A stretch of 64,000 nucleotides of DNA, from assembly GCA_010093605.1 (NCBI GenBank), contig MU004183.1:682001-746000 (forward strand). Reading direction: 5' to 3'. The notes below the pieces were generated by a model, which saw only the letters and a list, made by a program, of their open reading frames with translations, did no database searches and was not told where the DNA came from. Position 1 is the first letter of the stretch; each line of letters opens with the position of its first letter. Source of the stretch: Lophium mytilinum. Lineage: Eukaryota; Ascomycota; Dothideomycetes; Mytilinidiales; Mytilinidiaceae. A program made the position numbers and the translations under genes. Below, in pieces: positions 14,043-55,700 of the stretch.

Positions 14043-14787
14043 GTTCTTGACGGTAGTAGAGCTTTGACGTTGAGGTATCGCAGCCGGCGACCAGGGCGAG
14101 GGCTCGCGCTTCTTTTCAATGCTGAGAAGCTCTCGGGACGGACTCGTGAGCGCGCTCCGAGGCAAGACACAGCAAGCGCTGGAACCTCGGCGAAACCCTT
14201 CGGACTTTGGTCGAGTAACGGGCTTATTGGCCGGTTTGGAGTTGCTGTCGTACTCAAGGTGCTCGGTACCAAATATGTAGGTGAAGCGGTGGTAGCTGGA
14301 TTCCCTTTTTCCGAGAGCTGGACGCGCTTGGAAACACATCTGAATATGAGAAGGTCGGACAGGGAAGACATGCTTTTCTTCTTTTATGGTACGCATGATA
14401 GATCAGTGGCAGGGGGTCTGGTGGCTCACGGACATCGGACGTCGGTTTGGGGCGCTGCCATCCCACGTCGTGGTGTTGAAGTCCGCATTACGCCCCGCCA
14501 ATCATGCTGCGTATGCTTTAGTTCAAGGGAACAGCTGCTACAACGAGTATCGTGTCGTTGGCATCTTCGCCTGCACCGTACCCACCTGGGATATGAGAGA
14601 CGTAAGCCCTCAGCCTTGCAAAAGGGCTGAAAGCACTTAGTCCGCATATGGTCAAGCGTGTGTCGGCGCAAGGCGATGCTAGCGGCGTTTCAAGGCAGCG
14701 AGCCTCCGATCTGCCGCAACCAACCCTCTTCTCATCATGACTCCAGATGTTGTCTTACCCCCTTAATGCCCCCGAGCGTTGTCGACG

Positions 14788-16636
14788 ATGAGCGCTCCTC
14801 CGACGTCGAGTGCAAAGCCAGTTGAGCGCGTTAACTTAGCATGTCTACAATGCCGCGCCCGCCATGTCAAGTGCGATTCAAGCCAGCCAATCTGCAATAG
14901 GTGTAGGCGAGATGGCAAAGCTTGTGATTACGCAAAGTCCCGGAGAGGAGGACTCGACAAAGCTGCTCTTGCACAGAGAAGACTTGCACTGCTGCACCAA
15001 CAACAGGAACAGTCCGTGACGCCCAATCAGACCCCCAAGTCCTGCACATCATCGTCGAGCGGGGGTAAAAGCGATCAGTTGGAGCGTTCCGACGCCCCGT
15101 CCCTGGGATTGTACGATTCGATATCTATCGGCTCCACCGAGATCACCTTTGCCGTCGATTCCGACAGACTGGTCCAACTGTACTTTGAGTATTTTCACGC
15201 CGGTCATCCTTTTCTATTGCCTCAACAATTCTTTACGCAAAGACTTCAATCCGGAGCGCAGGACATGAAAATCTTAGAGGCGGTTGTACAATATGTCGGA
15301 TCTCGTTACGCACCATGGGCTACTTCGGAGGTGTACAGAAGAAAGGCTGAAAGTGCACTGGCAGCTAGTGAGCATGAAGCAACGCCATTTCGTGTCCAGG
15401 CCCTTCTCCTCTTCTCAATCACCAATCATTACTGCAGTGAATGGGGCATGGGCTCTACCATTCTCGAAACTGCAATTTCCTTAGCTTTAGCTTTGGGAAT
15501 GAATACCCACGAATTTTCAGGACAGTATGGGGAAGGAAGTCCTGTTCTTGAAGAAAGCTGGAGAAGGACTTTTTGGAGTTTGTACGTCACAGAGCAGCAC
15601 TATGCAGTCGTCAAAAGAATCATATCTTTTACTCTCAGGGACCTTCCTGGGGTTTCTGTTGGCCTTCCTTGTGAGGAGATCGAGTATGAGTCTGGGGTGC
15701 GTATAAATCCTATTTCTCTTTGGCGCGATTGCTAAGCTCCTCAAGGTGATCCCTCAACCAAAGACTCTCGCGGACTACGATATAAGAGAGTTAGATGAAG
15801 TTGAGGTTGTTTTCTCGTCATTTACATATCTTATAGATGGTCTCCGCATTGTCTCCGAGCTCATGAGAAATTTCGGAGACTTCAAAGCTTCGTGGGAAGA
15901 AACGACCGTTTACACTGATGCCAGACTCTCTGCGTGGAGCTCATTACTTCCAGCCTGCAAGAAGGAGTCAATCCTTCCCGATGGAAGCGTTGACGAGGTC
16001 ATGTTCTTTGCCCACCTCACGATTCTCATACTTACCGTGCAAATCCATCGACCTGCATCGTCTCTTGCGTGGAGCACCGAGGAATGGCAAACTGCTTTCA
16101 TACCCCGTCCTCCAATGGGAATGGTTCAGATAAAGCCAGAGAGACGTAACGTCAATACTGCGAAAGTACTCAGGGCCTTGGAAAAGCAAACGCAGCTTCT
16201 CACTCTCCCTTCTCCCTTGATACTTCACGCACCCTTCACGATGTGTATAGTCGCGGGATTTGCTGCCGCGCACGTCGCATCTTGCACTCTGTTTCCTGAC
16301 GACAGACGCCTAGCAGTGGGAAGAGACCGATTGCGTCTATGCATCGGTGCGATCAGAGCATGCGCTGATATCTGGCCACTGAATCGTCATATGCTGCGAG
16401 ACGCACAGAACATCGCAAAAGGAACGCTATCTCCACCAACGATCATGTCACACCAAACGGCGAGAGCCCCTCTGGAATTTGAGGTTCCAGAAGTCACTAA
16501 GCAAACGAACGAACTCGATTTCGACTTTAGCGTTGGTCCCATGTCCGAAGTTGATATATTCAGCGCATTGGAAGTGCCTGGCATGCCTCAAGACTGGAGC
16601 GCTCTCCTCGATCCCTCGAGTCTCCCGACCGTGTGA
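14788..16636 (+). CDS. Zn(II)2Cys6 transcription factor with fungal-specific middle homology region (2 exons)
   Basis: Exons 14788-15696 and 15746-16636 join across a 49-nt intron (GTGCGT donor, GCTAAG branch) to 599 residues. Cysteines at 19, 22, 29, 36, 39 and 46 form a textbook CX2CX6CX6CX2CX6C binuclear zinc cluster (CLQCRARHVKC ... CNRCRRDGKAC) that binds DNA through CGG half-sites. A Gln/Ser-rich linker follows. From about residue 125 the sequence resembles the fungal transcription factor regulatory domain (YFEYFHAGHPFL, ALLLFSITNHY, RRTFWSLYVTEQ). The start is the first ATG; no upstream in-frame ATG is seen. Its position between QPRTase and a nicotinate-type permease suggests that it may regulate one or both, but this is inference from context. 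Confidence 0.9.
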
Positions 16637-25981: not shown

Positions 25982-28900
25982 CTATAGGTGTAGCCCTTGC
26001 TTAATCAATTTGCCGAGGGTAACGCCCTGATGATTGTTAGTTTCTGTAAGATGTTGCAGACTGAAGAGGGTAACTTACATGAGCATCCTTCATCATCGTG
26101 AAGTGATTGCCGCCCATGACGGCGAACTCGAAATTCTCCTTTGGTAATAGCTGTGCCCAGCCATTGTCTGAGAAGTCGGTGCGGTTATTCAGAAGCCACT
26201 TCATGGGAGCAGGATCTTCCTCCTCAGCTGGTGGGGGACGAGGGTCGTCTTCATTTGGGCATACACCGTCTGTGCACCAGATGGCGAAGACTTTAGGTGC
26301 CTTGGAATGGAGCATCGGTTCTGGCTCATACTCCTTTAGGGCGTTGATGGAAGCCGTGAAGTGAGGAAGAAGCCAGCTAGGAGTTCCGCCTGGCTTGCCA
26401 GTACCGAGCAGACCGATCTGGTCGAAGAAGACGTGAAGGCGGGCCGGTAGAGGATCCAGTCTGACGGGGCAGGGTGAATCGATCAAGACAAGGCTCTCAA
26501 CCTTCTCACCAGCTTCGATGAGTTGAAGAGTAACTTCATAAGCCATCACACCTCCAGCGCTCCATCCACCAATGATGTAGGGACCCTGAGGCTGTCGACG
26601 CTTGATCTCATTGAGATAAAGGCGGGAGACACCTCGGACACCACAAGTGAAGTCAGTCGGGTTTTTCATGAAAGGACAGTTCAGTCCGTAGACCGCCATA
26701 TCCGGGGAGATGTTGGGGATAGAGATGTATGAAGTCGCGCTACCAGATCCGTCGGGAACCAAGAAAAACTTTTTGCTGGCGATCTTAGCATTACCCTGGA
26801 GAAGAACAGACGTAGCTGGCGGAAGTTTGGAGAGGTCTTGGGCTTTTTCAAGCTTGCGGTTGACTTCAGCGAGCTGTGGGGGCTTTGGCTTCAAGGTGGG
26901 CTTTGCTTGGGTCTTGACTGGTACCTGAACTTTAGCAACTGGCTTAGGACGCATGCCTAGTTCGTTTTCAACGTCTTCGATGCAAGCGTTGGTGACGAGG
27001 AAAGTTGAGGGCAAGTCGATTCCGGTCTGCTCTCGGAGAGAACTGAGGATGGTCAGACTCATAAGCGAATCCATACCCATCTCAGAAAGGTCGGCTTGAT
27101 CAGTAATCTCAGAAATGTCGACGCCCATCTCTTCGGCTACAATCCGTCGTGCAAGACTGGGACCACCATCGTTGACTTCGGTGGGCTCACTGATATTGAT
27201 TTGCACCGAAGGCTCTTTCCCTGAAATGCTTGCAGCGGAGCTGGGAGCAGAGCTGGGAGGCGTGCTCGCAGACGCCGCTTCGTAGGGTGTGACGAGGTCT
27301 GATGGCTCGTCTGAGGAGTCGGAATCTTCTTCTTCCACAAGAGGAGCTCCTCCGTCGTATTGGGAAAAAAAATTCTTCATCTCTCCAATGGTTGGATAGT
27401 CCGTGAAGAGAGTAGAACTGATCTCCAGGTCAAGGTCCTCGCGAAACTTAGCAGAGATAGTCAAAGACAGAAGAGAGTCAACGCCCAAGTTCTCAAAGGC
27501 TGCCTCATCGACAAGCTCCGACATGGCCATGTCAGTCTCCTCTGCGATGATCTTCATGACGCGAGAAGAGATAGAGTCGGCAGCAGGCTTTGCAGCGCGG
27601 ACTTTGGCCACCTTAGCAGGCTTCGTAGCCTTAGAAGTTTTGGCAGGAGGAGCGAGTTGGGCCTTCGGGGCTGGAGCCGCCTTGGGTTGGATAGCTTTAA
27701 CTGGAGCAGCTCCCTTAGCAGCGGTCTTAGCGCCGACCGGAGGAAGCATGATGTTGAGGACGCGGCGGGGGATTTCCTGAAATTTGAGACCAATGCAGAC
27801 ACCAATGACCTCCTCGCCCTCCAAGAAGTAAACGTCGCCAACCATGAGGTTGCCGGGCTGCGGCTGCATTCGAACGTAGGAGCGGTAATTTCCTTCGGCA
27901 GACAGTTGCTTGGAGAGTTTGAAGTTGCCCCAACCGTGGGAAATGTATACAGACTTTTCAGAGTCAACCAGATCCGAGGCATTGACAATGAAGCCGGAGA
28001 TATGGCAGAGGGAATCGACCCAGTGTGGGGAGCAGTAGAAGTCACCGTCGGCCGGGGTGGACTGGAACTTGATGGATGCTGTGGCCTCAGTTTGCTTGCC
28101 GTCGAGGATGACTTCCTCCATACCCTTGTACTTGTCGTCATATGTGACCAATGCCTTGAACAGCTTGTAGGCCATGCCGCGAAGAACCTTGTGCGCGGCT
28201 CCTGACTGGAGCTTGCCCTTGAGGAGGTCGATCTGGGTCTGAACCATGTACTGGGTCCGGTTCCATTCCTCTTTCCAGACTTCGACATCCTCGTACTTGA
28301 CAGTACCGTAAGCGTGATCGGCAATGACTTTACCAGCGGGAGTAACACTTCGGAACTTGAGATCCACCGTACCGAGCTCAAGGTCAGCAGTAGCCTCGAG
28401 CTGGATGTGCTGTCCTTCTGGAGGTGGCGGCATGATAGCAACAAGAACCTTCGGCACTTCAACCTTGCAGACATTCAGACCAGGGGTAGGAATGTTCGGT
28501 CGGAGTTCCTTCCAGAGATAGTCGGCGGCAGTCAAAGCCATATCAACATACAAGGTAGACGGGCAAAGAGGTGCACCGTTGACCATGTGCCCGGTCACGA
28601 CCTTGTAGAGCTTGGGCTCGGCGAGATCAGATTGGATGACGATGGTACCAGAATTTGCCTGCAGATCCTCGCGCACAATCTTTTGGCAAGATGTAGTGGA
28701 GAGCTTGGAGACGACTTCTACCACAGGCTCGGCCTCCATGATAGCTGCAGCCTTGGGGGCCTCGCCCTTCGTGAGAGTCCAGTTGTTGGTGTAGTCGAGC
28801 CAGTACTTCTTGCTGTCGAAAGAGTACGTTGGGAGGGTAAGCAGCTGATGCGCGCTGTTGAACTCGCGGTGGTATTCATTGAAGTCGATAGCAACGCCTG

Positions 28901-31900
28901 CGAGATACAGGCTGCACAGGCTGGACGCGATGGTCTTCCACGGATCTTCGCTGCGGCGGAGAGAAGGAGCGGTGACAGGAGCGCCGCCGAGCGATGCCTT
29001 GACCATTCCACTGCATACGGGGTGAGCGCCGATTTCCAACCAGGCAGTCTTCTCGTCGAAGACCTTCTCGTCCTTGCCCGTGGACAAGGCAGTCCAGAAG
29101 TTGACCGTCTCCCGTGCGTGGCGTGCGAGGTAGTCAGGTCCGATGATTCCTGCTTCGCGGATGACTTGACCCGTGAGTGGGGAGAGGACCGGAACAGTCG
29201 GCTTGTTGAACGTGACTGAGGACGCAACAGCTTTGAAAGACTCCAGGATGGGGTCAACCTGCGAGGAGTGGAATGCAAAAGGTACATTAAGCTTGGTCGC
29301 TTTTAATCCTTTCGATGCCAAGATATTGCTGGTAGAGTCCATGAGGTCGCTAGTGCCGCAGAGGACAGTCTCCTCAGGGCCGTTCACGCACGCGATCTCG
29401 GTCATGTTTGATCCGAGAGCGGCGGAAATAGCGTCAACACCACCCTTGACAGCGAGCATGCCATGAGTGTAGGCGGTGCAGTCTGCCTCCAAGAGCTCGG
29501 CGCGACGTCCAACCAGTAGGATCATGTCGCTGGCAGAAATGACACCAGCAACGTGAAGGGCGGCATATTCTCCCAGGCTGTGACCAATAACAGCAACGGG
29601 CTTCAGACCCCACGCAGACCACATGCGAGCGAGAGCAACTTGAATGCAGGCCATGCCGAGTTGCACAACGACAGGAGATAGGGTCGTGACGTCGGTGCCA
29701 TCCAAGAGAGGGATGAACGACGGGAAGCCCTGCATGCGCGCAATGTTGTCCAGCTGCTCAATGTCGGTCTTGAAGGAGCTCATCTGCTCATACAGTTTCT
29801 GGCCAAGGGCGGTGTATTGAGAGCCTTGACCAGTGAAGGTGAAAGCAGTCTTGGTGGGAACCATAGCAATCGGGCTGTACGAATCCTTCAGCTGGGCCTG
29901 GAGAGAATCCTTGACCTTCGCGATCTCCGAGATAGGGAAAGCGACGCGGTAGTTGTGTTGGATGCGGCGGGCAGTCGTGGTGTATGACAAGCTCGGCAGG
30001 GTGGTATCCGGGTTCTCCTGGAGGTAGCCGATGAGGTTGACAATGTTGGTCTTCAAAGAAGCAATGGACCTCGCGGAAACAGTCACAATGTGTGCAGACC
30101 TAGGGTCAGCTGCTGTAGGGACTTCGCGGATAGGACCATCTTCGAGGAGTATAGCGGTGTTACCGCCAGCAGCGCTGAAGTTGTTCAAGAAGATGCGGCG
30201 TTTCTCAGCGCCCTTGCGAGGGAACGCAACCTGAGAAGTCGAGATGTGCACGTTGCGCTGACCCAAGTCCTTAGGGAAGGTCTTGTTGATCACACCCTTG
30301 ATGCCGACGTTGGCAGGAATGGCGTTCTTCTTCATCATCATCATCACCTTGATCAATGAATTGATACCAGAAGCAGCTTCACCGTGGCCAATGTTCGCCT
30401 TGATGGCGCCAAGATGAAGCGTTTCCTCAGGGCGACGTTGGCGATGGCGGGGAGCAAATACGTTGGTGACCGATGTCATTTCAATGCCATCACCAGCTTG
30501 AGTGCCAGTGCCGTGCATCTCGACGTAGCTGATACTATGGGCATCAACACCGGCATTAGCAAGAACGCGCTTGTAGAGGAACTCTTGGGCGCCTGCGTGC
30601 GGGTGGGTAATCGAGACTGCTTCCGCGGAGTGGTTGGTAGCGGCTCCCAAGATGCATCCCAGAATGTTGTCGTTGTCGGCGATGGCATCCTCATAACGCT
30701 TGAGAATGACAGTACCACATCCGTCACCTCGGCAGTACCCATCGGCATCATTGTCGTATGTCTTGCATCCACCAGTCTTGGACAAGAACTGGCCTTTGCT
30801 GAGACCAGCGAAAATGTCAGGGTTGGTGAGGACGTTCAACCCACCAGCACAGGCAGTGTCGCAGTCGCCAGCCCACAGAGATGTGCAAGCAAGCTGGATG
30901 GCAGCGAGAGACGACGAGCAGGCGGTGTCGATGCTGTATGAAGGGCCGGAAAACTTGAAGTAATAATTAATGCGTCCCGGGGCGAACGCACGCACACCTC
31001 CAGTGATGAAGTATGTGTCGACGTTTTGGGCCGCATTAATTTCACGCCAATCATCGGATGTTTGACCGTAGAAGGTACCAATCCGGTGCAACTTCGTGGA
31101 AGGCGTCCGGTTTGGCACATAGCCAGACATTTCGAGTGCCTCGTAAGCAGTCGTCAGTGCCAAACGACCCATGGGATCTGTCTGCGCTGCCTCGCGAGGA
31201 GACATGTTGAAGAACCGGGGATCGAAAAGACCAGGCTCATCGATGAAACATCCGTAGGGAGTATGGCTCTTGTTCTTGCCTTTGCCGGAGGGGTCGCAAT
31301 GGGCTTGCGCGTCGAATCGGTCGGCTGGTACCTCCCTGTGAACATCCAGTCCCTTTTCAAGAAGCTCCCAGAGCTTCTCGTGGCTTGCAGCACCGGGGAA
31401 ACGGCCAGAAATGCCAACAATGGCAATCTTGTCGTTCTGGGTGCGGCCTGCGGCATCCTCTGCCTTCAGTGCCCAGGAGGTGTGATCACGAACAGAGATG
31501 TTCGACTGGCCGCCGGCCTTGAGCGCGGACACCAAGCTGTTGGCGATGTTGGTCACACCAATAGCGGCAACTGAACATTCGGCGTTGCTGACGGCGGTGA
31601 TCTGCGAAACAGTCTCCTCCAAAAGACTGTCCCACCTGACCGGCTGCATCAACATCTCCTTCAGCGCGAGTTCGACCAGCTCGAGGGTGCTGGTGGCGGT
31701 GTGGCATTTTCCTGAAGAGGCCGAGTGGACCAGGCTGTACGGGCGGTACTCCCTGAGGAATTCTCGTGTCTTCGGGTCGATGATTCGTGCAACATCAGCG
31801 TCGTTGTATAGATGCTGCGCGTGATAAGGAGCGAAAACGGGAATCGGAACGCGGTGGTTTTTGCTGAACTGCTCGGATTCCTTGAATAGACGCCTGGTCG

Positions 31901-32585
31901 TGGAGGGAGGTCCGCTGATCGTCAGGGCCATCACGCTCACAGCGCTAACGTAAGCCTGGTTGGACACTGGAATGCCAGTCTTCTGGTGGAACTCGGCAAG
32001 AGCTGCTCTAGCTGGTTGCTCCGAGATGTTGGCGACAATGGTGGACCATGGTTCGGTCGAAGTAGCGTCTAGGGCATCCCTAGCCACTCCAACGCAAGAG
32101 CCAGCTCGGAAAGCGACTCGGACGATCTCGACCGCTAGGGGGAGCAGGTCTGCAGGGCTTTTAGATGAAGCAACTGCAGCGCCTGCGAGAAGACCAGTGC
32201 ACAGTCCAAGAATCCGGGCGTTTGAAGGTGCTGGTATTTCGGTTGGGTTCTCGCCGTAGTACCTAAAACATTAGCCGAGCCCTCGACCATTCATGTGGCG
32301 GACGTACCCGATGTAGTGCGCGAGTTGTGCTAGTGTTACCATGCAGCTCTCCAGTTGCGGGATTCGGAGCCCCTTTGCAAAATAGGCTTCCACGAGATCC
32401 GACACCCTAAGGAAGTCTGGGATCTCTGCGCGTTGGGTCCGGGGAAGCTTCTCAATCTCGTCCCGGAGGACCACGCTGACGCGCTCCAAGAAAGTCGACA
32501 GCAGGGCATTGTCCTTCCGCAGAGATACCTTCCGCAGGAGCGGGTACTGGTCGGCCGTTTGATCTCCAAAGATGAGGGCGTTCAT
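25982..32585 (-). CDS. PKS1: Non-reducing polyketide synthase for DHN melanin (SAT-KS-AT-PT-ACP-ACP-TE), 3 exons
   Basis: Exons 32585-32308, 32262-26079 and 26026-25982 (introns of 45 and 52 nt) give 2,168 residues. Domains in order: starter-unit ACP transacylase (about 1-370; GLCTG Cys114, YHAQHLY His240), ketosynthase (about 370-800; DTACSSS Cys541, HGTGT His676, KANIGH His719), malonyl-CoA acyltransferase (GHSLGEY Ser988), product template (GHMVNGAPLCP His1318, HWVDSLCHISGF Asp1509), two acyl carriers (LGVDSLLS Ser1689, MGMDSLMS Ser1825) and thioesterase/cyclase (GGWSAGG Ser1994, GGNHF His2146). All catalytic residues are present. This architecture is that of the melanin synthases (PKS18/ALM/PKS1 group) making 1,3,6,8-tetrahydroxynaphthalene. 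The ATG at 32,585 is preferred because it opens directly with the conserved MNALIFGDQT. Confidence 0.95.
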
Positions 32586-41500: not shown

Positions 41501-42968
41501 CTGTCAATGACGCTATCGTATCTTTCCTGCATTCTCTCTAACACTCTCGTTACGACCGAATTCGTCGACGAGAACTGAGGTTCCAGCACCATGGTTCGAC
41601 CGTCCCAAACGCAGGTTGCCGCCGGACGCAGGCAATCGCTGGGACTGTGCAAAGCGACCCAATACTTTTGGGAATACTCTTTATTGGAGTATCGCGGTCC
41701 ACGTCATCACATATCGTGAGCGTACAAGCTCGTTAAGAGGTCGGGACTGTCTCCACGTTGATCACGACATGCTCCTTGCTTCATGTACAGTGCCCCATAT
41801 TTCTTAATCGAAAAGCATCATCCCGACGATTCGCTCCGATAAAGTGAATCCGGGTCCATGGGCGAACACGCCGTGCGCATAGGACTCCAATGTCGTGGTA
41901 TCATCGATGTGCAATCTATCCACAGCGCTTCAGCGGGATCCTGCAGGAGGGAGAAAGAGAGTTTCGGGGATATTATTGACACGAACTGAATTACGCAGGA
42001 CAGGCCGTTAGCAAAGCTGAGGTTTCATTGATATTGACTTCGAGAAACGTGGGCGATAACCCAGACCCTGTGCATGCGCAAAGGCTAGAAAGAGATAGAT
42101 GAAGAAAGACGGAGCTGACGAGCATGCGTCAATACAATCGTGGTTGTACCAAGTCCTTCTCGAACCCCGTATCACACGTTCTTCAGCCCTTGTCCCTGCC
42201 TACACTGCGTCGGCGCTCTCACAAAGGGTCCACGGAAAGAGAACACCTTCCACGACATCAATGCCATGTCGTCGGATTAAGGGCCTACCACCACGTTGTG
42301 TGGTTGCATGTCGCACGACTGGCTGCACAGCTCGTGGTGCATTATCTAGCTCGTTTCCTCCGGCGGAACGTTCGGGACTGAGGTTACACGAGGCGTCGAC
42401 GCGTTCTGACAATAAGCAGACCCCTATCGGAGAGTTGCAGTCCTTTTGCCAACGTCTCCGTGTTGTGATCGCCATCCTGCATACGTATGGCGTCTGCGTC
42501 AGAGTGAACCGTCGTTCTGTGCAACTCAGGGGGTTTACTCCGGAATGTCGCACAAGAAAAGTTCTACCACCCAAACCATTGAAGCGAGCGGTGGTACAAA
42601 GGGTTTGTCGGCGTCATGTCCCACGTCTATACCACATCCTCGGCGCTTGTGGTTGTTTCGTCCTGGTACCATTTACACGACCTGTGAAATACACGTAAGA
42701 CTTAAGTCAGACATGTTAAGAAGAAATAATTGGGTAGACTGATTAATGAGGAGGAGACTTTGCACGTTGTACTTCTCCCTCACCGCTAGAACATCGTGTC
42801 CTGCGGCGCTCGCACTGCAGAGATGACTTGACGAGAGCATCGACTCGCTCACTTTCCTCACCCACACTGACGCCCAGCTTCACCGCCTCGTCCCTCGCGT
42901 CGCTGCCCTCATCTGGGGCTGTACATGACAAGAGATCTTTTTTTGTCGACCTCCTTCGTCGCGACGTG
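32586..42968. other. Long gene-free interval upstream of the PKS
   Basis: Ten kilobases with no convincing protein gene. The frames present (longest about 200 codons, 42,099-42,698) are Arg/Ser/Pro/Cys-rich with no recognisable motifs, as expected of chance frames in balanced or GC-rich DNA. Near the PKS a TATTAAAATATTAAAG stretch (32,789-32,804) could serve as a TATA-type element on the minus strand. A 107-bp tandem array lies at 38,743-39,095. CGAATACGAATACGAA near 36,930 is a short minisatellite. Confidence 0.55.
38743..39095. repeat. About 107-bp tandem repeat, 3.4 copies
   Basis: Copies start at 38,743, 38,849, 38,956 and 39,059 (the last partial). Each has TGTCGCGAGATGTATAAACG, GGGAGC-AGTCCGTG, GAAGGCTGTTTGGGC, GACGACGCTTCAAA and a GATCAA-GTTGATTT-AG end. 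Identity between copies is roughly 80 percent by eye. The unit does not keep an open frame. Confidence 0.8.
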
Positions 42969-42970
42969 TA

Positions 42971-43104
42971 CAGCCTTGACCGAAATCAGAGGCCGCCCCA
43001 AATTCGAAAAACATATTTTTAAATATAGATTTCGGGCCGCCACATAATCTCTACAAATAGGCTATTCCTGTAGTAGTAATTAGCCTGTTTTTTAGGGGAT
43101 TAAG
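42971..43104 (+). repeat. Left terminal inverted repeat
   Basis: 134 bp, ending at GGGGATTAAG. It matches the reverse complement of 46,741-46,874 with five transition differences. The outer part still contains CpA sites (CAGCC, TCAGAGG), unlike the interior. Confidence 0.9.
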
Positions 43105-43241
43105 TAGACAATAATAATAATAAATAAACTAGATTTCGCCGAGCCCTTCTATTCTATCTGCTATATTCTCTCTTCCTTCTTTCCTATATAGATTTCTTAT
43201 AATAGCTTCTTATTTTCTTTACTACTATACCTGCCCGCCTA

Positions 43242-44252
43242 AGTAAATACGCCTACAACGCCGCCAACATACTAATTAAGGGCGGAATTACCTCTTATAA
43301 GCTTAGCTATAAGCTTAATTACTACTAGAGGACTATAAGAAAGTTAATAAGGTAGTAGAGGGCCTAGGGCACTACCTACGCACCTTCTAATTAAGTAGGA
43401 AGATAGCGCAGCCTTACTATAGTAATAGTTATCTATTTACTAGTATAGCTTACTAAAAAGCTAATACTATATATAGATAAGATGCAGTAGCTACTATATA
43501 ATAAGTTTAGCGCTATTATTTCTTACTTATCTATTATAAGAGAGTTAAGGCTAGCCGGTTAGAATAGAAAGATAGTAAGTATACTACCTAGTAGATAGAG
43601 CCTATACTAATATACCTAGTACTACTATTACGCCCTTAAATATAGCTATAAGGTACGTAATATATATATAGTGTAGATTTTATAGTTCTAGGCTAATTAG
43701 CTTATATTTATTAATAAATTAGGTGCTAACTTAAAGACCGGCGTAAGAAAGTTTAGATAGTCTTCTATAGGCGTTGCGCTAGTATAGAGAGTACTATATA
43801 ATTAAGGAGAGACGCGGCTTAATATACTACTAGCCTATACTATTAATAGTATTCTTATCTTATTAGTATATAAAGGAGCTATAAATAATAAGAGCTATAA
43901 GTACTAGATTTAGAACTACCTTCTTCCAGCGTGTAGTTAATTTCCTGCGCTAAAATTAGTAGTAGTTATAGATAATACAAGCTTCTACTACTCTAATTAG
44001 ATAGAAGCTTTATTTAGAGAGGTAGGCGTTATTTTAGTATATCTACTGCTATATTTACTAGATTTAAACCTAATTAAGAAGTTTTTTAGTAAGCTAAAGA
44101 GCTTTATATATTATAGCTAGCTAGCTTAAATAGGCTACTCTAAGTACTTTAAGTATAGCTTTAAATAGTTTCTAAAGTATTATATAGAGGTAGTAGGTAG
44201 TAATAGGGCTTAGGCGAGAGGCTATTTTAAATATAGTAGTTATATTTAAGAA
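43242..44252 (+). pseudogene. DDE transposase remnant (Tc1/mariner, DD34E), inactivated by RIP
   Basis: One frame runs through this stretch with many stops, almost all TAG or TAA at positions where CAG, CAA or TGG is expected. The N-terminal part keeps a helix-turn-helix-like segment (KYAYNAANILIKGGITS, compare AxxYxVxxxTLxxRxxG). Later come LNILLAYTINSILI and a VVVIDN segment followed by IEALFREVGV and YLLLYLLDLNLIKKFF. These correspond to the DDE_3 endonuclease fold: Asp at 43,971 and the last acidic residue at 44,076, where GAG has become AAG (Lys), with 34 residues between. Loss of the catalytic Glu and the stops make it dead. The protein would have cut and pasted the element. Confidence 0.8.
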
Positions 44253-44699
44253 TATAAAGAAGAATATAGAGGAGGTTATAGTTAGTAGAAGGTTATTCTC
44301 TCTAGCGTTTACTATTAATTTCTAGAAGTGTAGGTAAATTAAAATATACTAGCAGCTAATTAGCTTACTTATTATATTAGCGTGTACCTTATTCTTACTT
44401 CTTCTAAGTCTATTCTACCCCTACGCTAAACTACGGCCTCTAATTAGCTTAAACGGCTGCTACCTAGAGCTAAGTAACTATAGCCTAGAAAATTAATAGG
44501 GGTATAGGCTATAGTTATATAGTAAGTCTATATATATACTTACTATTGCGCTAATAGCTATTAGCGTGCTCGCTAAGTTAATATACAGCCTCTAATTAGC
44601 TTAAATAAGGGCTAAGCTAAACGGAAAGGCTATATATAGACTTTCTATTTAATAGTAAATATAAATATAGTATATAAAAAGAGGATATATATATAAAAT

Positions 44700-46700
44700 A
44701 GTATATATTTTATATATAGAAATAGTAAGTAAATATACTATAGTTTTATATAGCATTTCTCCTTTATATATAACTGTTTTTGCCCGTTTAAATAAGCTTA
44801 ATTTACCTCTCTCTCGCGCCTATAGCTTATCCTGCGTTTCTTCCTCCTCTACTAATACCTCTATTCTCTTCTTCTTCTACTACTTAACTTCTTTAATTAT
44901 ATTGCTAATTAATATATTAGAAACGCCTATATCTATTATAATAGCCCTTACCGCCGCCTTATCTTTATAGATATAATCTAGGGTTATCTACTACTTCTAG
45001 AGAGCCTTTTAAGCTACCTAGAACTTCTCTACCTACTTAGAATTATTCTATACGCTCGCCTTAAGGCTATTAAAGTACTCCTCTATATTCTAGACGCAAT
45101 TTTTAACTCTATTTACATATTAAATATATAGCGGCGGCAATAACAGCAGCTTAGTTAGTGCCCTCTTTAACCTCTTTCTCCTCCTTAATAGCAACCTAGA
45201 TTCTAAGCTTAAGCTATACCTGCGGTGGTAGCTACTAACTACCTAATTATTAAGGACTATAATAACTAGTATAGGCGCTGCTAGCGTTACTAGAGCTAGC
45301 GTTAATTTAGGCCTTAATTGCCTATTATCTTATTACTTCTAGAATATCTTTATTATTGCCCGCGGAGGCGTCTCTATATTAATACTATTCTCTCCTCTTA
45401 CTATAGTCTAGCTTATAAGGTTACCCGTAAGAATTCTAATATATACGCCGTCTATTTAAAAGCACTAGCTTAATAACTATATATAGGTTTAATTGCTGCA
45501 CCTCTACTATCTTATAAAAGCTATCTAGAAGAGCTGTGCACTACTAGTAGCCTTATTAACTAGTACTAATTAAGTAGATAGAGCTCTAGCTAACTAAGCT
45601 ACTATAGAATTTAACACCGGGCCGCCTATTCCGCCGGCGCTGCCCTAATTAGTATAGAATAATTCTATCTTAATTATTAATAGCTTCTATATATTAGTAT
45701 TATTAATATAGTCTATCTAATTAATTACCTTCTTATTAAAGCGTTAGTAGTTCTTCTTCTTCTCTAGGTTAATTAAGAGCTTTAAAAGCTTTACGCTATA
45801 CTATATAGTATTAAACTTTATCTTAATAGGCGGGGCTAATATCTAGTTACCCGCTAGGTTATATATATAAAGAGTAGCCTATACTTTTAGATAGATAATC
45901 TTTACCTAGAGCACCGCGCACAGAACGCCTTATTTCTTAAAGGTGTCCTCTAGTAAGATTCTTACTACCTACTTATCTATCTTTACCTTAATTACTAATA
46001 GTATATTATATATAGTAAATATACAGCCGCGCGGCGGCCTATAGACCTTCTATTAGCGCCCCTACTAGTAGAGAATTAGCTTTTTTAGAGTATTATTACT
46101 ATTACTATACTCTATAGGCGCCCGTAATATATAATATAGAGGTAAGATAGTTAAGGCTATTTAAGAGGCTATTTAAGAGGCTATTTAAGGGGTAGATCTA
46201 GCTAATAATAATAGCGTAGGTAGGCAGCTATAGCCCCCTCTAGGGGCCCTCTAGTTCTTAAACGCCTAGCTATTCTCTTTAAAATTATAGCTAATTTTAG
46301 AGCTATAGTTATCTATAGGCGGTAGTAATAGCCCTTTAAAAGGCGCCTTTTCTACTAGTACTCCGCCTATAATCTTATTAATTAATAGGCCGCTAAGTAG
46401 CTTAGCTGCTTCTATATTAGTATAGTTAAGCTAGGTTAAAGAGGGTAGCTATATTAGGCTATTAATTAGCTAAGAATAGAAATTAAATAAGGCTATACTT
46501 AGAAGCTGTTAAGATTTATTAAAATTTAATAACAATAGTAAATTAGGCGGGCGATAAGAAATAGAGGCTAACTCTAGGTTGTTTAATAATATTACAGCGT
46601 TGCGTTAAGGTTTCTAGTAATTTAGAAAGAAGGCTATTATTAAAAAGTAGTAAATAGGTAAGTATAAGCTTTCTTAGCCCTCTCTATATAAGTATAAGAT
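44700..46700 (-). pseudogene. Second transposon reading frame, unrecognised, inactivated by RIP
   Basis: On the minus strand one frame can be followed from about 46,700 down to about 44,700, some 650 codons. It is interrupted only by TAG/TAA codons that fit mutated CAG/CAA. The N-terminal third looks disordered and Gln/Asn/Pro-rich. A middle part with QGSAGGIGGPVLNSIVAQLA and IDGVYIRILTGN looks folded. A Pro/Arg-rich linker (YHRRYSLSLESRLLLRRRKR) leads to a helical, Gln/Lys/Glu-rich C-terminus (EEYFNSLKASV, EKFQVAQKALQKQQ with TAG/TAA read as Q). A 12-bp unit (AGGCTATTTAAG, three copies, 46,154-46,189) would encode an I-A-S-Q repeat. It converges on the transposase. No family is recognised. 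Confidence 0.6.
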
Positions 46701-46740
46701 AATATAAACTTTATATTACTATAGTAATTGTAGCCGGGCA

Positions 46741-46874
46741 CTTAATCCCCTAAAAAACAGGCTAATTACTACTACAGGAATAGCCTATTTATAGAGATTA
46801 CATGGCGGCCCGAAATCTATATTTAAAAATACGTTTTTCAAATTTGGGGCGGCCTCTGATTTCGGTCAAGGCTG
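46741..46874 (-). repeat. Right terminal inverted repeat
   Basis: 134 bp, the reverse complement of 42,971-43,104 apart from five transitions; ends GGCTG next to the flanking TA. Confidence 0.9.
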
Positions 46875-47727
46875 TACAGCGTAGTGTCTCAACGTATGGC
46901 GGGAATTTTTACTTGACAAAGACACAGCCCCTACAGGTCGCCTTGTTACCGACTTAGCTTAAAGGTTGTCGTGGAAGGATCGGGTCATCATCCATCGCGC
47001 CGGGATCCCCATGTCTCATTACCTACAACGGTACCACGGGACGAGTTCGATTCAAATCCCATGTTCCCTGACTCTTCTGTCCCCCACAGTGGAAGTTAAG
47101 GCTGTGCTTCGACGTGGCGATAGCCGTTGGGCCAGTATGATCGACGGGTCTAATGATCCTCTGGACCCAGATTTCAGCCCCTGGGCTCGAACACGAGCCC
47201 CAAGGGCTGTGTTTCCTGTACTTTCTGAAACAAACAGGAAAAGTGTCGTCGCGGTCAAGATCTGTGGCAAGTCGTCGCGAGACGGTAGGATTCTAACTTT
47301 AGACTCTAGTCAGGTCGCGGGCGGTTGGACAGGAAGGGAGGCCTCAAAAGCTTAATGCCCCACGACCGCTCAGGCCTGTGGCTCATTGTGGGGGCTGGGG
47401 CGGGAACACGACGGAGTATGACCGAGAATGCACAACGCTGAAACAGTATAGGAAAAAGGGAAAAATAAGCTTATACGACATTTCGATTGGAGGCTTGGCT
47501 TTACGAGTTTGTTTAGCGCTGCGTATTGCCTACTGCGGTGTTCCGAGCAGTGTGGTGGGAAGTTGCACCGCTGGGGCCCGGCATCTTCCAGTGCGCTCGT
47601 AAAAGTGTGGCAAGGGAGAAGGAATACGAATGGATGGGCGTCTACAAGTTCTCATCTGGGATCGTCAATATTGAGCTGATGCTGTGATGCCGACGGTGCC
47701 GAATGGAAGCTCCACGGTGGAGTCTCG

Positions 47728-52737: not shown

Positions 52738-55700
52738 ATGGTGTTCTGCACATATTGCGGCCAGTCGTTTACGAGGGACGAGCACCTCGAGAGGCATATC
52801 CTTACCCGTACGTCCTCCACCCTCCCCACGGCTCCGATTTTTTGGAGATGGCCAACTGACGAGCTTCTGTGGTCTAGACACTAATGTAAAACCGTACAAA
52901 TGCTTTACTTGCCATATGTCGTTTGCCCGTCGGTAAGTGGTTCTCTATTGCAAGGCTGGTCGTTCCAAAATGCACACACGACTTCCCTGCAGCTTCTCCA
53001 ACACCTCTTTGACTTGCTGACACGCAATTAGCGATCTGCTCCAGCGTCACTACACCGTCCATGGCCGGGACGCTAATAATCAGGAAGGCTTACCGCCGAA
53101 TTCTGGAATAATACCCAAATCCGCCGGCAGAACGCCCATCGCCTGCAGTAACTGTGCAAAGACGAAGACGAAATGCGACAAGAAGTTCCCCTGCAGTCGC
53201 TGCGCAAGTAGGAACCTCCGCTGCACCCTCCGGCCGACTCGCCGGGCCTCGAAGAACGTCAATCGTGTGTTACCGCCAGGCGAGAGTGCGGGAAGCGGCA
53301 GTTCGTCTGAGCATGGCAACAATGGCAGTCCTAACGGCTCGAATCGCAACTCTCCTCTTGCACAGACTCAGACTCTCCCCGAATCGCAATCACAGACCAC
53401 TCCACAGATCCAGCCGCAGCTCCTCCAGAATCCCACCCCCGAGGACGAGAAGCCCCCCTCCATGGAAGGGCCTACGCCGTTTTTCGAGCACAGCCCTCAG
53501 AACGGGCAAACAGCGGTGCTCCCGTCTGTCCTGTCACCGCTTCCCACCCCCGTCAACGGCTTCATTGCACAGACACCAATGTCTGGGTATGACGACTTTC
53601 TCCGTGCCGGTAGAGACGGCTCAGAGAACAACTCCAGTCCACGATTTCTTATGGATTGGGCACATGTGCAGGTGGCTCCAGAGTACGACCCGATGGGCAG
53701 GATAGATCCCTCGATGATGATGGCCACCATGGGAATGGAAATGAACCACATGCAACAGCACGCTGACGGTCTCCTGGGTATGATTCCGGAGATGCAGACC
53801 CCACACGGATTCCCCGTTCAAACACCGAGCCACACCCCGCGCATGGACGAGACGTTTTCAGACCTCCAAATTGGCAGCTCCGCTTCGATGTTCTACACTT
53901 CTCACAGCCGTCAGCACTCGATTACTGATTCCGGGGTTGCGGACCTCGGCGCTATCATTGCCGCCCAGGACGGGTGGACCGTTTTCAGGTGCACCCCTCC
54001 TATCCCGTCTAGCTCGTGTCCACGAACGGCGAAGCTGAACCTGGAACGACTCGAACAAACTCTGCGTAATCACGAAGGATGGAGCCAATGGAGGCCACTG
54101 TGGGATGAGGCTGACTTCGCGTCGGGAGAGCAACTGTCGGTTACGCCAATGCGTGAAAGCACCCGAGACAAGCTACTCGCCATTACGCAGATGTTCTTGC
54201 ACAAAGCGCTTGATATCCACAAGGACGGCATGAGCAGCTCGCCAGGCAGCGGCGAGTCACCCAGCTCCACAGGATCCAACTTCGTACTCCTCCCACCGGC
54301 GACGGTGCTAGACTCTTTCCTTCGCTCTTACGCTAATTCTTTCGAGCGGTACTACCCAATGACGTCGCGGGGCGTGCTGGACTCGAACGAGCTAATGCAA
54401 TGCTATAATGACAAAGCCTCGACTTTACTAATTTTAATGATGATTGCCCAGGGCGCGATGGTAATTCCGTCGGTCGAGGCACGGTGGTTGACAGGTGGCC
54501 TTACGGAGGCATGCCGCATCTCGCTCTTCGACCTAATCGAGAAAAACATTATCATGTCAGGAGACCCGATTGTGTTGCGTTCGGCGTTGCTCTTTACCGT
54601 CCAGGCGGCATGGAGCGGCGACAAGTGGCAGATGGACATCGCCATGGGTCAACGCGGCATGTACTTTGCGATGCTGCGGCACTCAGGCGTGCTCGAGCCT
54701 GCACACGCTACGCCAACGCCTAGACTGAACTCAAGAGGGACGACTGAGACGTTGTGGAGCGACTGGATTACGATGGAGAGCCGAAGCAGGTATGTCGTAG
54801 AAACTTGACGTTGGTGTATCACGTGCTCACTATTCGTTAGGTTGATCTATTCGTGGGTAATGGTCGATCAAGACCTGTCGCTGTTCCATGATACAGCACC
54901 GCTTTTCTCCGTCACTGAGTTTGGCGCGCCCATGCCAGATGCCGACAGGTTGTGGCAGGCGAAGACGTCCCAGGAGTGGTCTGAGGTCTTCAACCAGGTG
55001 CACGAGTTCAGCGGCGGCTACTCCTCCGTGGGCTCGGGCGCGCGTCCGTTGTCGCTGCGTGATCTGTTCCGTCTGTTCCTAGATGACGAGATAATCCCCC
55101 AGAATATTGCTCTAACGCCACTACATTTGCGGCTATTACTCCACCCGCTCCAGTCACTTGTCTGCCAGTATTGCCAGCTGTTAAGCTGCTTCTCCGACAC
55201 TATGGCCTCACGCAACCGCTCTCGCGCCGTGACGGCAGCGTCGACCCGCGTTCGCCTCGAGGAAGTGCAAGCTCTTCTACAGCGCTGGTATGACCTTGCA
55301 GACCGTTATTCCAAGGCGAACCCCATGTGCGCTATGATGCACGCCAATCTTGTTCTGTTCCACCTCATTTCCCTCAACGCCGTAACGAACTTCCCCGAGA
55401 TCGAGCGTCTCGCCCGCCGTGAAGGTTTCGACGGCACTTACCAGCAGCTGCTCTGGATCCACAAGCGCTGCATCGCCGACGTCGAGGAGGCGATCTTCCA
55501 CTGCGGCCAGGTGCTTCGGCTCATTCGGTCTATGCCTCGGGGAATTCGTCCTCCATGGTGGCCTGGAGCAGTCTACCGAGTTGCTCTGATCATGTGGACC
55601 GATAGTTTGACACACAACGAGAGTGTGAGCCCATCCAACGGCATGTTCCCTCCATCTGGCGTGTCCTTCGCAGTCGACGGCTTGCCAGCGGAGCATCCTC

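What the first reader, a model, noticed from the sequence alone, without database searches (positions are those of the whole stretch)
44700..46700. A second, ~650-codon reading frame inside a Tc1/mariner-type transposon, convergent with the transposase
Directly seen: one minus-strand frame persists for about 2 kb with stops only of the TAG/TAA kind, and reading those as Gln restores continuous protein-like sequence. It includes a disordered N-terminus, a glycine-bearing middle (GSAGGIGGPVLN) and a helical Gln/Lys-rich C-terminus. Tc1/mariner elements normally carry only the transposase. Inference: this is either an accessory transposition protein or a captured host gene. I could not match it to any family.
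Basis: partly seen in the sequence, partly recalled or inferred. Interest (0 to 1): 0.8.

Follow-up and report, generated by a model that had tools for sequence, protein, structure and literature searches.

The report
Fungal jumping gene with second gene
A mutation-ravaged fungal jumping gene appears to carry, besides its own mobility enzyme, a second unknown gene pointing back at it; larger relatives in the same genome have the same layout, and a comparable two-gene element is already in print.

Summary
The frame is very probably real. Window 42971-46874 is one 3,904-bp Tc1/mariner element: TA duplications, 135-bp TIRs, a plus-strand DDE_3 transposase (Pfam 7e-11). A minus-strand frame (about 46640-44760) scores far above chance in a RIP-aware codon test (24.6; shuffle mean -15.6; 0 of 1000). 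Limits: 'only TAG/TAA stops' is no evidence (no frame there has TGA), stop counts alone are weak (11 of 1000), and in 44700-45699 the antisense frame scores slightly higher. The one other copy found (C18) has the same layout, no indels, and all 258 differences inside the element are transitions: RIP, not a nested insert. Both transposases read Asn and Lys at two of three catalytic places. No family, PDB or other own-genome match was found for the second protein. New here: three larger relatives with both ends found (5.2-5.8 kb) also carry a convergent second ORF, a protein aligned at 14 loci with third-position excess of transversions; its kinship to the window's ORF2 is unproven. Best reading: a resident accessory gene of a long-TIR Tc1/mariner lineage; function inferred only. 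A two-ORF Tc1/Mariner family with a coiled-coil ORF is in print for Pyrenophora tritici-repentis (PMC3538342): new variant of a known kind.

The parts
42969..42970 (.). TA target-site duplication, left
   Evidence: TA next to both ends in both copies, flanks beyond differ
42971..43105 (.). Left terminal inverted repeat, starts CAGCCTTGACC
   Evidence: inverted pair 42967-43105 / 46740-46878, 96% complementary; ends trimmed by comparison with the C18 copy
43272..44330 (+). RIP-broken Tc1/mariner transposase (best-supported stretch; ends approximate)
   Evidence: DDE_3 E 7.4e-11, residues 201-336 of the read-through 43101-44600; IS630 model residues 58-336, 44.4 bits, below its cut-off of 100; first Asp reads Asn and the Glu reads Lys in both copies
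44340..44690 (.). AT-rich spacer between the two 3' ends, no coding signal
   Evidence: best codon score -1.0; 589 of 1000 shuffles as high
44760..46640 (-). Second frame (ORF2), RIP-broken, convergent with the transposase; core 46457-44802; start and end codons not determined
   Evidence: codon score 24.6 over 44700-46699, 0 of 1000 shuffles; windows; read-through P0001
46740..46874 (.). Right terminal inverted repeat, ends GGTCAAGGCTG
46875..46876 (.). TA target-site duplication, right

Best explanation
A dead, RIP-mutated copy of a two-gene Tc1/mariner-type transposon from a long-TIR lineage of this fungus. One gene is the transposase (spacing of a DD34E type); the other, convergent with it, coded for a protein of roughly 550-650 residues that I take to be a resident accessory protein travelling with the element. 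Shown: element ends, TA duplications, transposase family, the coding signal of the second frame, two copies that differ only by transitions, and the same convergent layout in three further elements with both TIRs. Inferred: that the protein worked with the transposase (DNA binding or oligomerisation through a helical C-terminus) or helped the element against silencing. Both copies are now inactive.
For: Element and copies. Transposase. Coding signal in ORF2 and none in the spacer; 1-kb pieces 8.5 to 15.9 against at most 4.8 in 12 RIP-simulated non-ORF pieces. Same layout in relatives with strong minus-strand signal (50.1, 63.0, 38.6 against 7.0, 8.2, 2.2 for the best plus frame; 0 of 300 shuffles each). 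The relatives' ORF2 is conserved across families (32-36% identity where transposases are 47-54%), with transversions more frequent at codon position 3 than 2 in 11 of 13 pairs, 7 of 13 at p < 0.05 (pairs not independent).
Against: No direct test of selection on the window's own ORF2 is possible with two copies that differ only by RIP-type changes. Its homology to the relatives' ORF2 is not shown. The codon model was trained partly on ORFs of this window; it gives the transposase only 4.7 (17 of 1000 shuffles as high), and a RIP-simulated host exon that was in the training set 30-52 per kb, well above ORF2. Antisense frame equal in 44700-45699. Function has no evidence beyond position; the fold is unusable.
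Confidence: 0.55

Rival explanations
1. A captured cellular gene or gene fragment (transduplication): the element picked up a host or foreign gene as passive cargo, with no part in transposition.
For: ORF2 has no proven relative among the other elements' ORF2; transduplication by fungal DNA transposons is in print, including a Tc1/Mariner family of P. tritici-repentis (PMC3538342, passages).
Against: No own-genome match other than the two copies at E <= 1 (a search that found 30%-identical RIP-broken relatives of the transposase); the same position and orientation is filled by a second ORF in L018, L021 and L029.
Confidence: 0.25
2. No second protein on the minus strand: the open-looking frame is a compositional artefact of RIP, or the gene is on the plus strand in the 3' part.
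For: Stop counts alone are not extreme (11 of 1000 shuffles); the plus frame is close in stops and scores slightly higher in 44700-45699; zero TGA is compositional.
Against: Codon score 0 of 1000 shuffles in both copies; 1-kb scores 8.5-15.9 against at most 4.8 in 12 RIP-simulated non-ORF pieces; the spacer of the same element shows no signal; relatives have a clear minus-strand signal in the same place.
Confidence: 0.1
3. A separate transposon or repeat nested in a normal one-gene Tc1/mariner element.
For: The transposase half alone would be the size of an ordinary Tc1 element.
Against: Both copies have the identical 3.9-kb layout without an indel; no convincing inverted terminal repeats inside 44330-46740; the block does not occur elsewhere in the genome without the element.
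Confidence: 0.04

Closest known systems
Tc1/Mariner family of Pyrenophora tritici-repentis with an added ORF holding an osmosensory transporter coiled-coil domain (PF08946), 46 members (PMC3538342; passages)
   Same: Ascomycete Tc1/Mariner with TIRs around a transposase and a second full-length ORF; helices are also predicted at low confidence in the C-terminal part of the window's ORF2
   Different: PF08946 not found in ORF2 (E up to 10) or in this genome; orientation of the published ORF not seen by me; there 31 copies are almost identical, here two RIP-broken copies
TBE and Tec elements of ciliates (PMC7325037 section 8; PMC4724952 passages)
   Same: Tc1/mariner superfamily elements with more than one ORF; one Tec ORF lies on the complement strand
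   Different: Three ORFs, other host kingdom, other accessory proteins (recombinase, zinc finger/kinase); no homology tested
Fanzor1-bearing Mariner elements (PMC3627910; abstract and passages)
   Same: TA-flanked Mariner elements with a transposase plus a second large protein
   Different: No zinc-ribbon (PF07282) match in ORF2 or in this genome; RIP would damage such cysteines, so this is a weak negative
TET/JBP-bearing fungal DNA transposons (PMC12730594; abstract, outline and passages)
   Same: Fungal DNA transposons carrying an accessory enzyme thought to counter silencing
   Different: 11 transposon lineages are named there and the word mariner does not occur in its text; no dioxygenase match in ORF2
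Tc1-OP1 of the yeast Ogataea parapolymorpha (PMC9977792; passages)
   Same: Fungal Tc1 element with a large unknown extra protein region of about 680 residues
   Different: There the extra region is fused to the transposase in one protein; here it is a separate convergent frame

Membership tests
Tc1/mariner (IS630-Tc1-mariner) superfamily | TA target-site duplication | tested here: met
   both copies
Tc1/mariner (IS630-Tc1-mariner) superfamily | terminal inverted repeats around a transposase of the DDE_3/IS630 kind | tested here: met
   TIR pair; DDE_3 42.5 bits, cut-off 28.6; NCBIfam IS630 44.4 bits is below its cut-off of 100
Tc1/mariner (IS630-Tc1-mariner) superfamily | intact catalytic DD(E/D) triad | tested here: not met
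   first Asp reads Asn and Glu reads Lys in both copies; explained by RIP, so kinship is kept and activity is denied
Tc1/mariner (IS630-Tc1-mariner) superfamily | single-ORF element of about 1.3-2.4 kb (usual, PMC4188875 passages) | tested here: not met
   3.9 kb with two coding-like frames
Second ORF of the P. tritici-repentis Tc1/Mariner family | PF08946 coiled-coil domain | tested here: not met
   no match in P0001 nor in the genome
Fanzor1 | C4 zinc ribbon (PF07282) and RuvC-like motif | tested here: inconclusive
   no PF07282 match, but RIP changes Cys codons; the rest of the motif was not tested
Transposon-borne TET/JBP dioxygenases of fungi | dioxygenase domain | tested here: inconclusive
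   no Pfam or PDB match, with sensitivity reduced by RIP
L018-type second ORF of the same genome | sequence homology to the 14-locus alignment | tested here: inconclusive
   no significant match by profile or pairwise methods; weak hints in the right frame of a size also reached by unrelated sequence
L018-type second ORF of the same genome | convergent position between transposase and right TIR | tested here: met

The most novel reading that the evidence does not exclude
Filamentous ascomycetes host a long-TIR Tc1/mariner lineage that is a true two-component transposon: the transposase always travels with a convergent partner protein, and the window element is a deep branch whose partner has diverged beyond recognition or was swapped. 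RIP would have hidden this lineage by erasing its reading frames.
Probability: 0.35. Interest if true: 0.65.

Novelty: new variant of a known kind. Interest (0 to 1): 0.42.

Why it matters
Tc1/mariner elements are the textbook one-gene transposons. A lineage that keeps a second gene in a fixed convergent position would make it testable what such a partner does (helping transposition, or countering fungal silencing). The case also shows that RIP-broken DNA can be read for coding content by codon statistics without restoring any base.

Tried and rejected
Family searches of the read-through ORF2: Pfam (best E 0.054, GD_AH_second, 14 bits against a cut-off of 27.3, taken as chance), NCBIfam none up to E 1, PHROGs best 0.25, PADLOC best 0.51, PDB none up to E 10 by single sequence and by two-copy profile. 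AlphaFold2 on the 552-residue core without an alignment: mean pLDDT 36; no fold search was run. Fanzor, TET/JBP and PF08946 were considered as identities and found no support.

Homology of the window's ORF2 to the relatives' ORF2: profile-profile comparison found nothing. The window's two-copy profile has its best local hit in the ORF2 frame of L045 (domain E 0.0026; best of 12 column shuffles 0.22, reversed 0.8). Against this: the sequence-level E of that hit is 8.1; pairwise BLAST finds the same region with 27.2 bits, which 10 of 60 shuffles reach; a RIP-adjusted profile alignment gives 15.9, reached by 3 of 60 shuffles and by three of five other frames; sub-profiles put ORF2 first or second for two regions but with E 0.53 and 0.22, and the C-terminal one not at all, while a presumably unrelated locus (L025) reaches E 0.0042. 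I treat it as unproven.

Other dead ends: a first alignment of the two copies was in the wrong orientation and was redone; only its junction and TIR prints are used. One search translated L018 one base out of frame and is not used. Shared stops as a test for ancestral stops: weak, because most stops are shared in the transposase frame too (27 of 32), and RIP has strong context effects. L027 has the transposase, but a reverse-transcriptase match (C16:1549671-1550123) lies in the neighbouring coding signal, so it was not counted. L023 has inverted pairs around its DDE_3 match, but no match to this transposase clade; left unanalysed. Literature: 8 searches; no passage that I read described this ORF2; I do not claim that it is not in print.

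Full report
What is there. The window comes from a 43.2-Mb genome in 24 contigs, fungal by its contents (RIP, Zn2Cys6 regulators; my inference). An AT-rich island (GC 29-36% in 43001-47000, 53% and 56% in the neighbouring kilobases) is one transposon. Two inverted arms, 42967-43105 and 46740-46878, are 96% complementary. A second copy on contig C18 (422855-426762) lets the ends be fixed: both copies share TA-CAGCC...GGCTG-TA and differ outside it, so the element is 42971-46874, 3,904 bp, with TA duplications. The DNA search, which gives lower bounds, found besides these two copies only their own TIRs and one 49-bp match on C12 (86%, in the transposase part); the ORF2 protein search found the two copies only.

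Transposase. The plus frame matches DDE_3 (E 7.4e-11, 42.5 bits, cut-off 28.6) and, below its cut-off, IS630. In the alignment with relatives 34 residues lie between the second Asp and the place of the Glu; the first Asp reads Asn and the Glu reads Lys in both copies (my reading of the alignment; that these are the catalytic residues is recalled knowledge of the family). Both copies must be inactive.

RIP. TpA/ApT is 1.84. Inside the element the copies differ at 258 of 3,904 positions, all transitions, without an indel (the 260 differences and one transversion include four flanking bases). Cytosines before A differ far more often than others (97 discordant and 43 kept in both; before T 21 and 697). 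Hence selection on the two frames cannot be tested by comparing these copies.

The second frame. Raw stop counts are a weak argument: zero TGA holds in all six frames, and 11 of 1000 shuffles have as few stops. I therefore scored codons with a model trained on 21 ORFs (9,333 codons, window and other loci) after simulated RIP. Over 44700-46699 the minus frame scores 24.6, the next best (plus) frame 12.5, the others -36 to -85; best-of-six in 1000 shuffles averages -15.6 (sd 5.0, maximum 3.3). C18 gives 20.7. The spacer gives no signal. The transposase, as positive control, scores 4.7 in the right frame, with 17 of 1000 shuffles as high, so the model is not strong on transposon genes. In four overlapping 1-kb pieces ORF2 scores 8.5, 11.3, 15.9 and 15.7, against at most 4.8 in 12 RIP-simulated non-ORF pieces; six RIP-simulated pieces of a host exon that was in the training set score 30-52, so ORF2 is weaker than a host gene. 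In 44700-45699 the plus frame is slightly higher (10.5 against 8.5): the strand is decided by the 5' part of ORF2. Within 44700-46699, the 9 stops seen in one copy only face CAG, TGG or CGG in the other; 46 are shared.

Identity. No family or structure match. The single-sequence fold is unusable (mean pLDDT 36). The lack of an own-genome relative outside the element speaks against a recent capture from this genome, not against an old one.

Relatives. Of 14 DDE_3 loci (13 over the cut-off) I fetched the 12 other than the two copies, plus one found by protein search. TIR pairs of 190-193 bp frame L018 (5,819 bp), L021 (5,776) and L029 (5,244); short elements of 1.3-1.5 kb with 41-54-bp TIRs are L019, L022 and L028; L020 and L026 have pairs of 32 and 66 bp, L023 several, and L024, L025, L027 and L030 none. 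A profile from five transposases of this clade also finds L024, L027, L030 and L043; the window's is 27-33% identical to the other seven. L018, L021 and L029 have a minus-strand second ORF in the right part: 50.1, 63.0 and 38.6 against 7.0, 8.2 and 2.2 for the best plus frame, although there too a plus frame has fewer stops. So 5 of 5 elements of the clade with both ends found share the convergent layout. In L024, L043 and, as a fragment, L030 both genes are seen and are convergent by my reading of the coordinates; in L027 the second gene was not identified, and L042, fetched over 6 kb, has the ORF2 but no transposase match. The other eight aligned ORF2 loci were fetched without enough flank to tell.

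The relatives' ORF2. It gave 38 matches in the genome, fragments and repeats included; 14 loci were aligned. The eight cross-family pairs with both genes are 32-36% identical in the ORF2 core and 47-54% in the transposase; in the two close pairs ORF2 is not less conserved (0.84 against 0.75, 0.77 against 0.75). Transversions are more frequent at codon position 3 than at 2 in 11 of 13 pairs examined (7 of 13 with p < 0.05, pairs not independent); the two exceptions have 7 and 1 transversions. These proteins match no family or structure either: Pfam best 0.029 in 1 of 14, PDB best E 1.1.

Is the window's ORF2 the same protein? Not shown. With transposases at 27-33% and ORF2 falling faster across families, kinship could be beyond reach. 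There are weak hints in the right frame and failed tests, told in Tried and rejected. I leave it open.

Mechanism. Most likely a resident accessory protein; whether it helped the transposase bind or oligomerise, or the element to escape silencing, is inference. The fixed convergent place in sister elements is the main argument; long C-terminal helices in the model have low confidence.

Known kinds. Two-ORF Tc1/Mariner elements are in print: P. tritici-repentis with a PF08946 ORF, 46 members, 31 with both coding regions full length, and similar coding sequences in tandem on a BAC of Alternaria alternata (PMC3538342, passages); TBE and Tec of ciliates; Fanzor1 Mariners; a yeast Tc1 element with an extra unknown region. 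Papers on two other fungi that I saw in passages report single-ORF potentially active elements in Cochliobolus heterostrophus (PMC4112212) and 1.8-2.3-kb elements in Sclerotinia sclerotiorum (PMC4188875). Hence: new variant of a known kind, of moderate interest.

Noticed in passing
L018:191-3049 (+), L021:6844-9744 (-), L029:850-3243 (+) and 11 further loci (alignment A3): A conserved, RIP-broken protein family without Pfam or PDB match, convergent with a Tc1/mariner transposase wherever both were seen.
   Followed up: partly
L018, L021, L029: middle of the elements: Besides transposase and ORF2, plus frames with positive codon score lie between them (for example L018 frame +2, codons 500-700), perhaps a third coding stretch or an exon.
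   Followed up: no
window 26040-32270 (-): Large ORF with SAT, ketosynthase, acyltransferase, two phosphopantetheine sites and thioesterase: looks like a fungal non-reducing polyketide synthase.
   Followed up: no
window 14767-15732 (+) and 53021-54805 (+): Two Zn2Cys6 regulator-type ORFs.
   Followed up: no
G000 contig C21 (614,441 bases): 28 of the 150 scored reverse-transcriptase (RVT_1) matches lie on this small contig (my count): a transposon-dense contig.
   Followed up: no
window 42967-46878 v C18 copy: RIP depends on the base before CpA: of 43 CpA sites kept in both copies only 3 are TpCpA and 25 are GpCpA; the window copy carries more of the one-sided hits (66) than C18 (31).
   Followed up: partly
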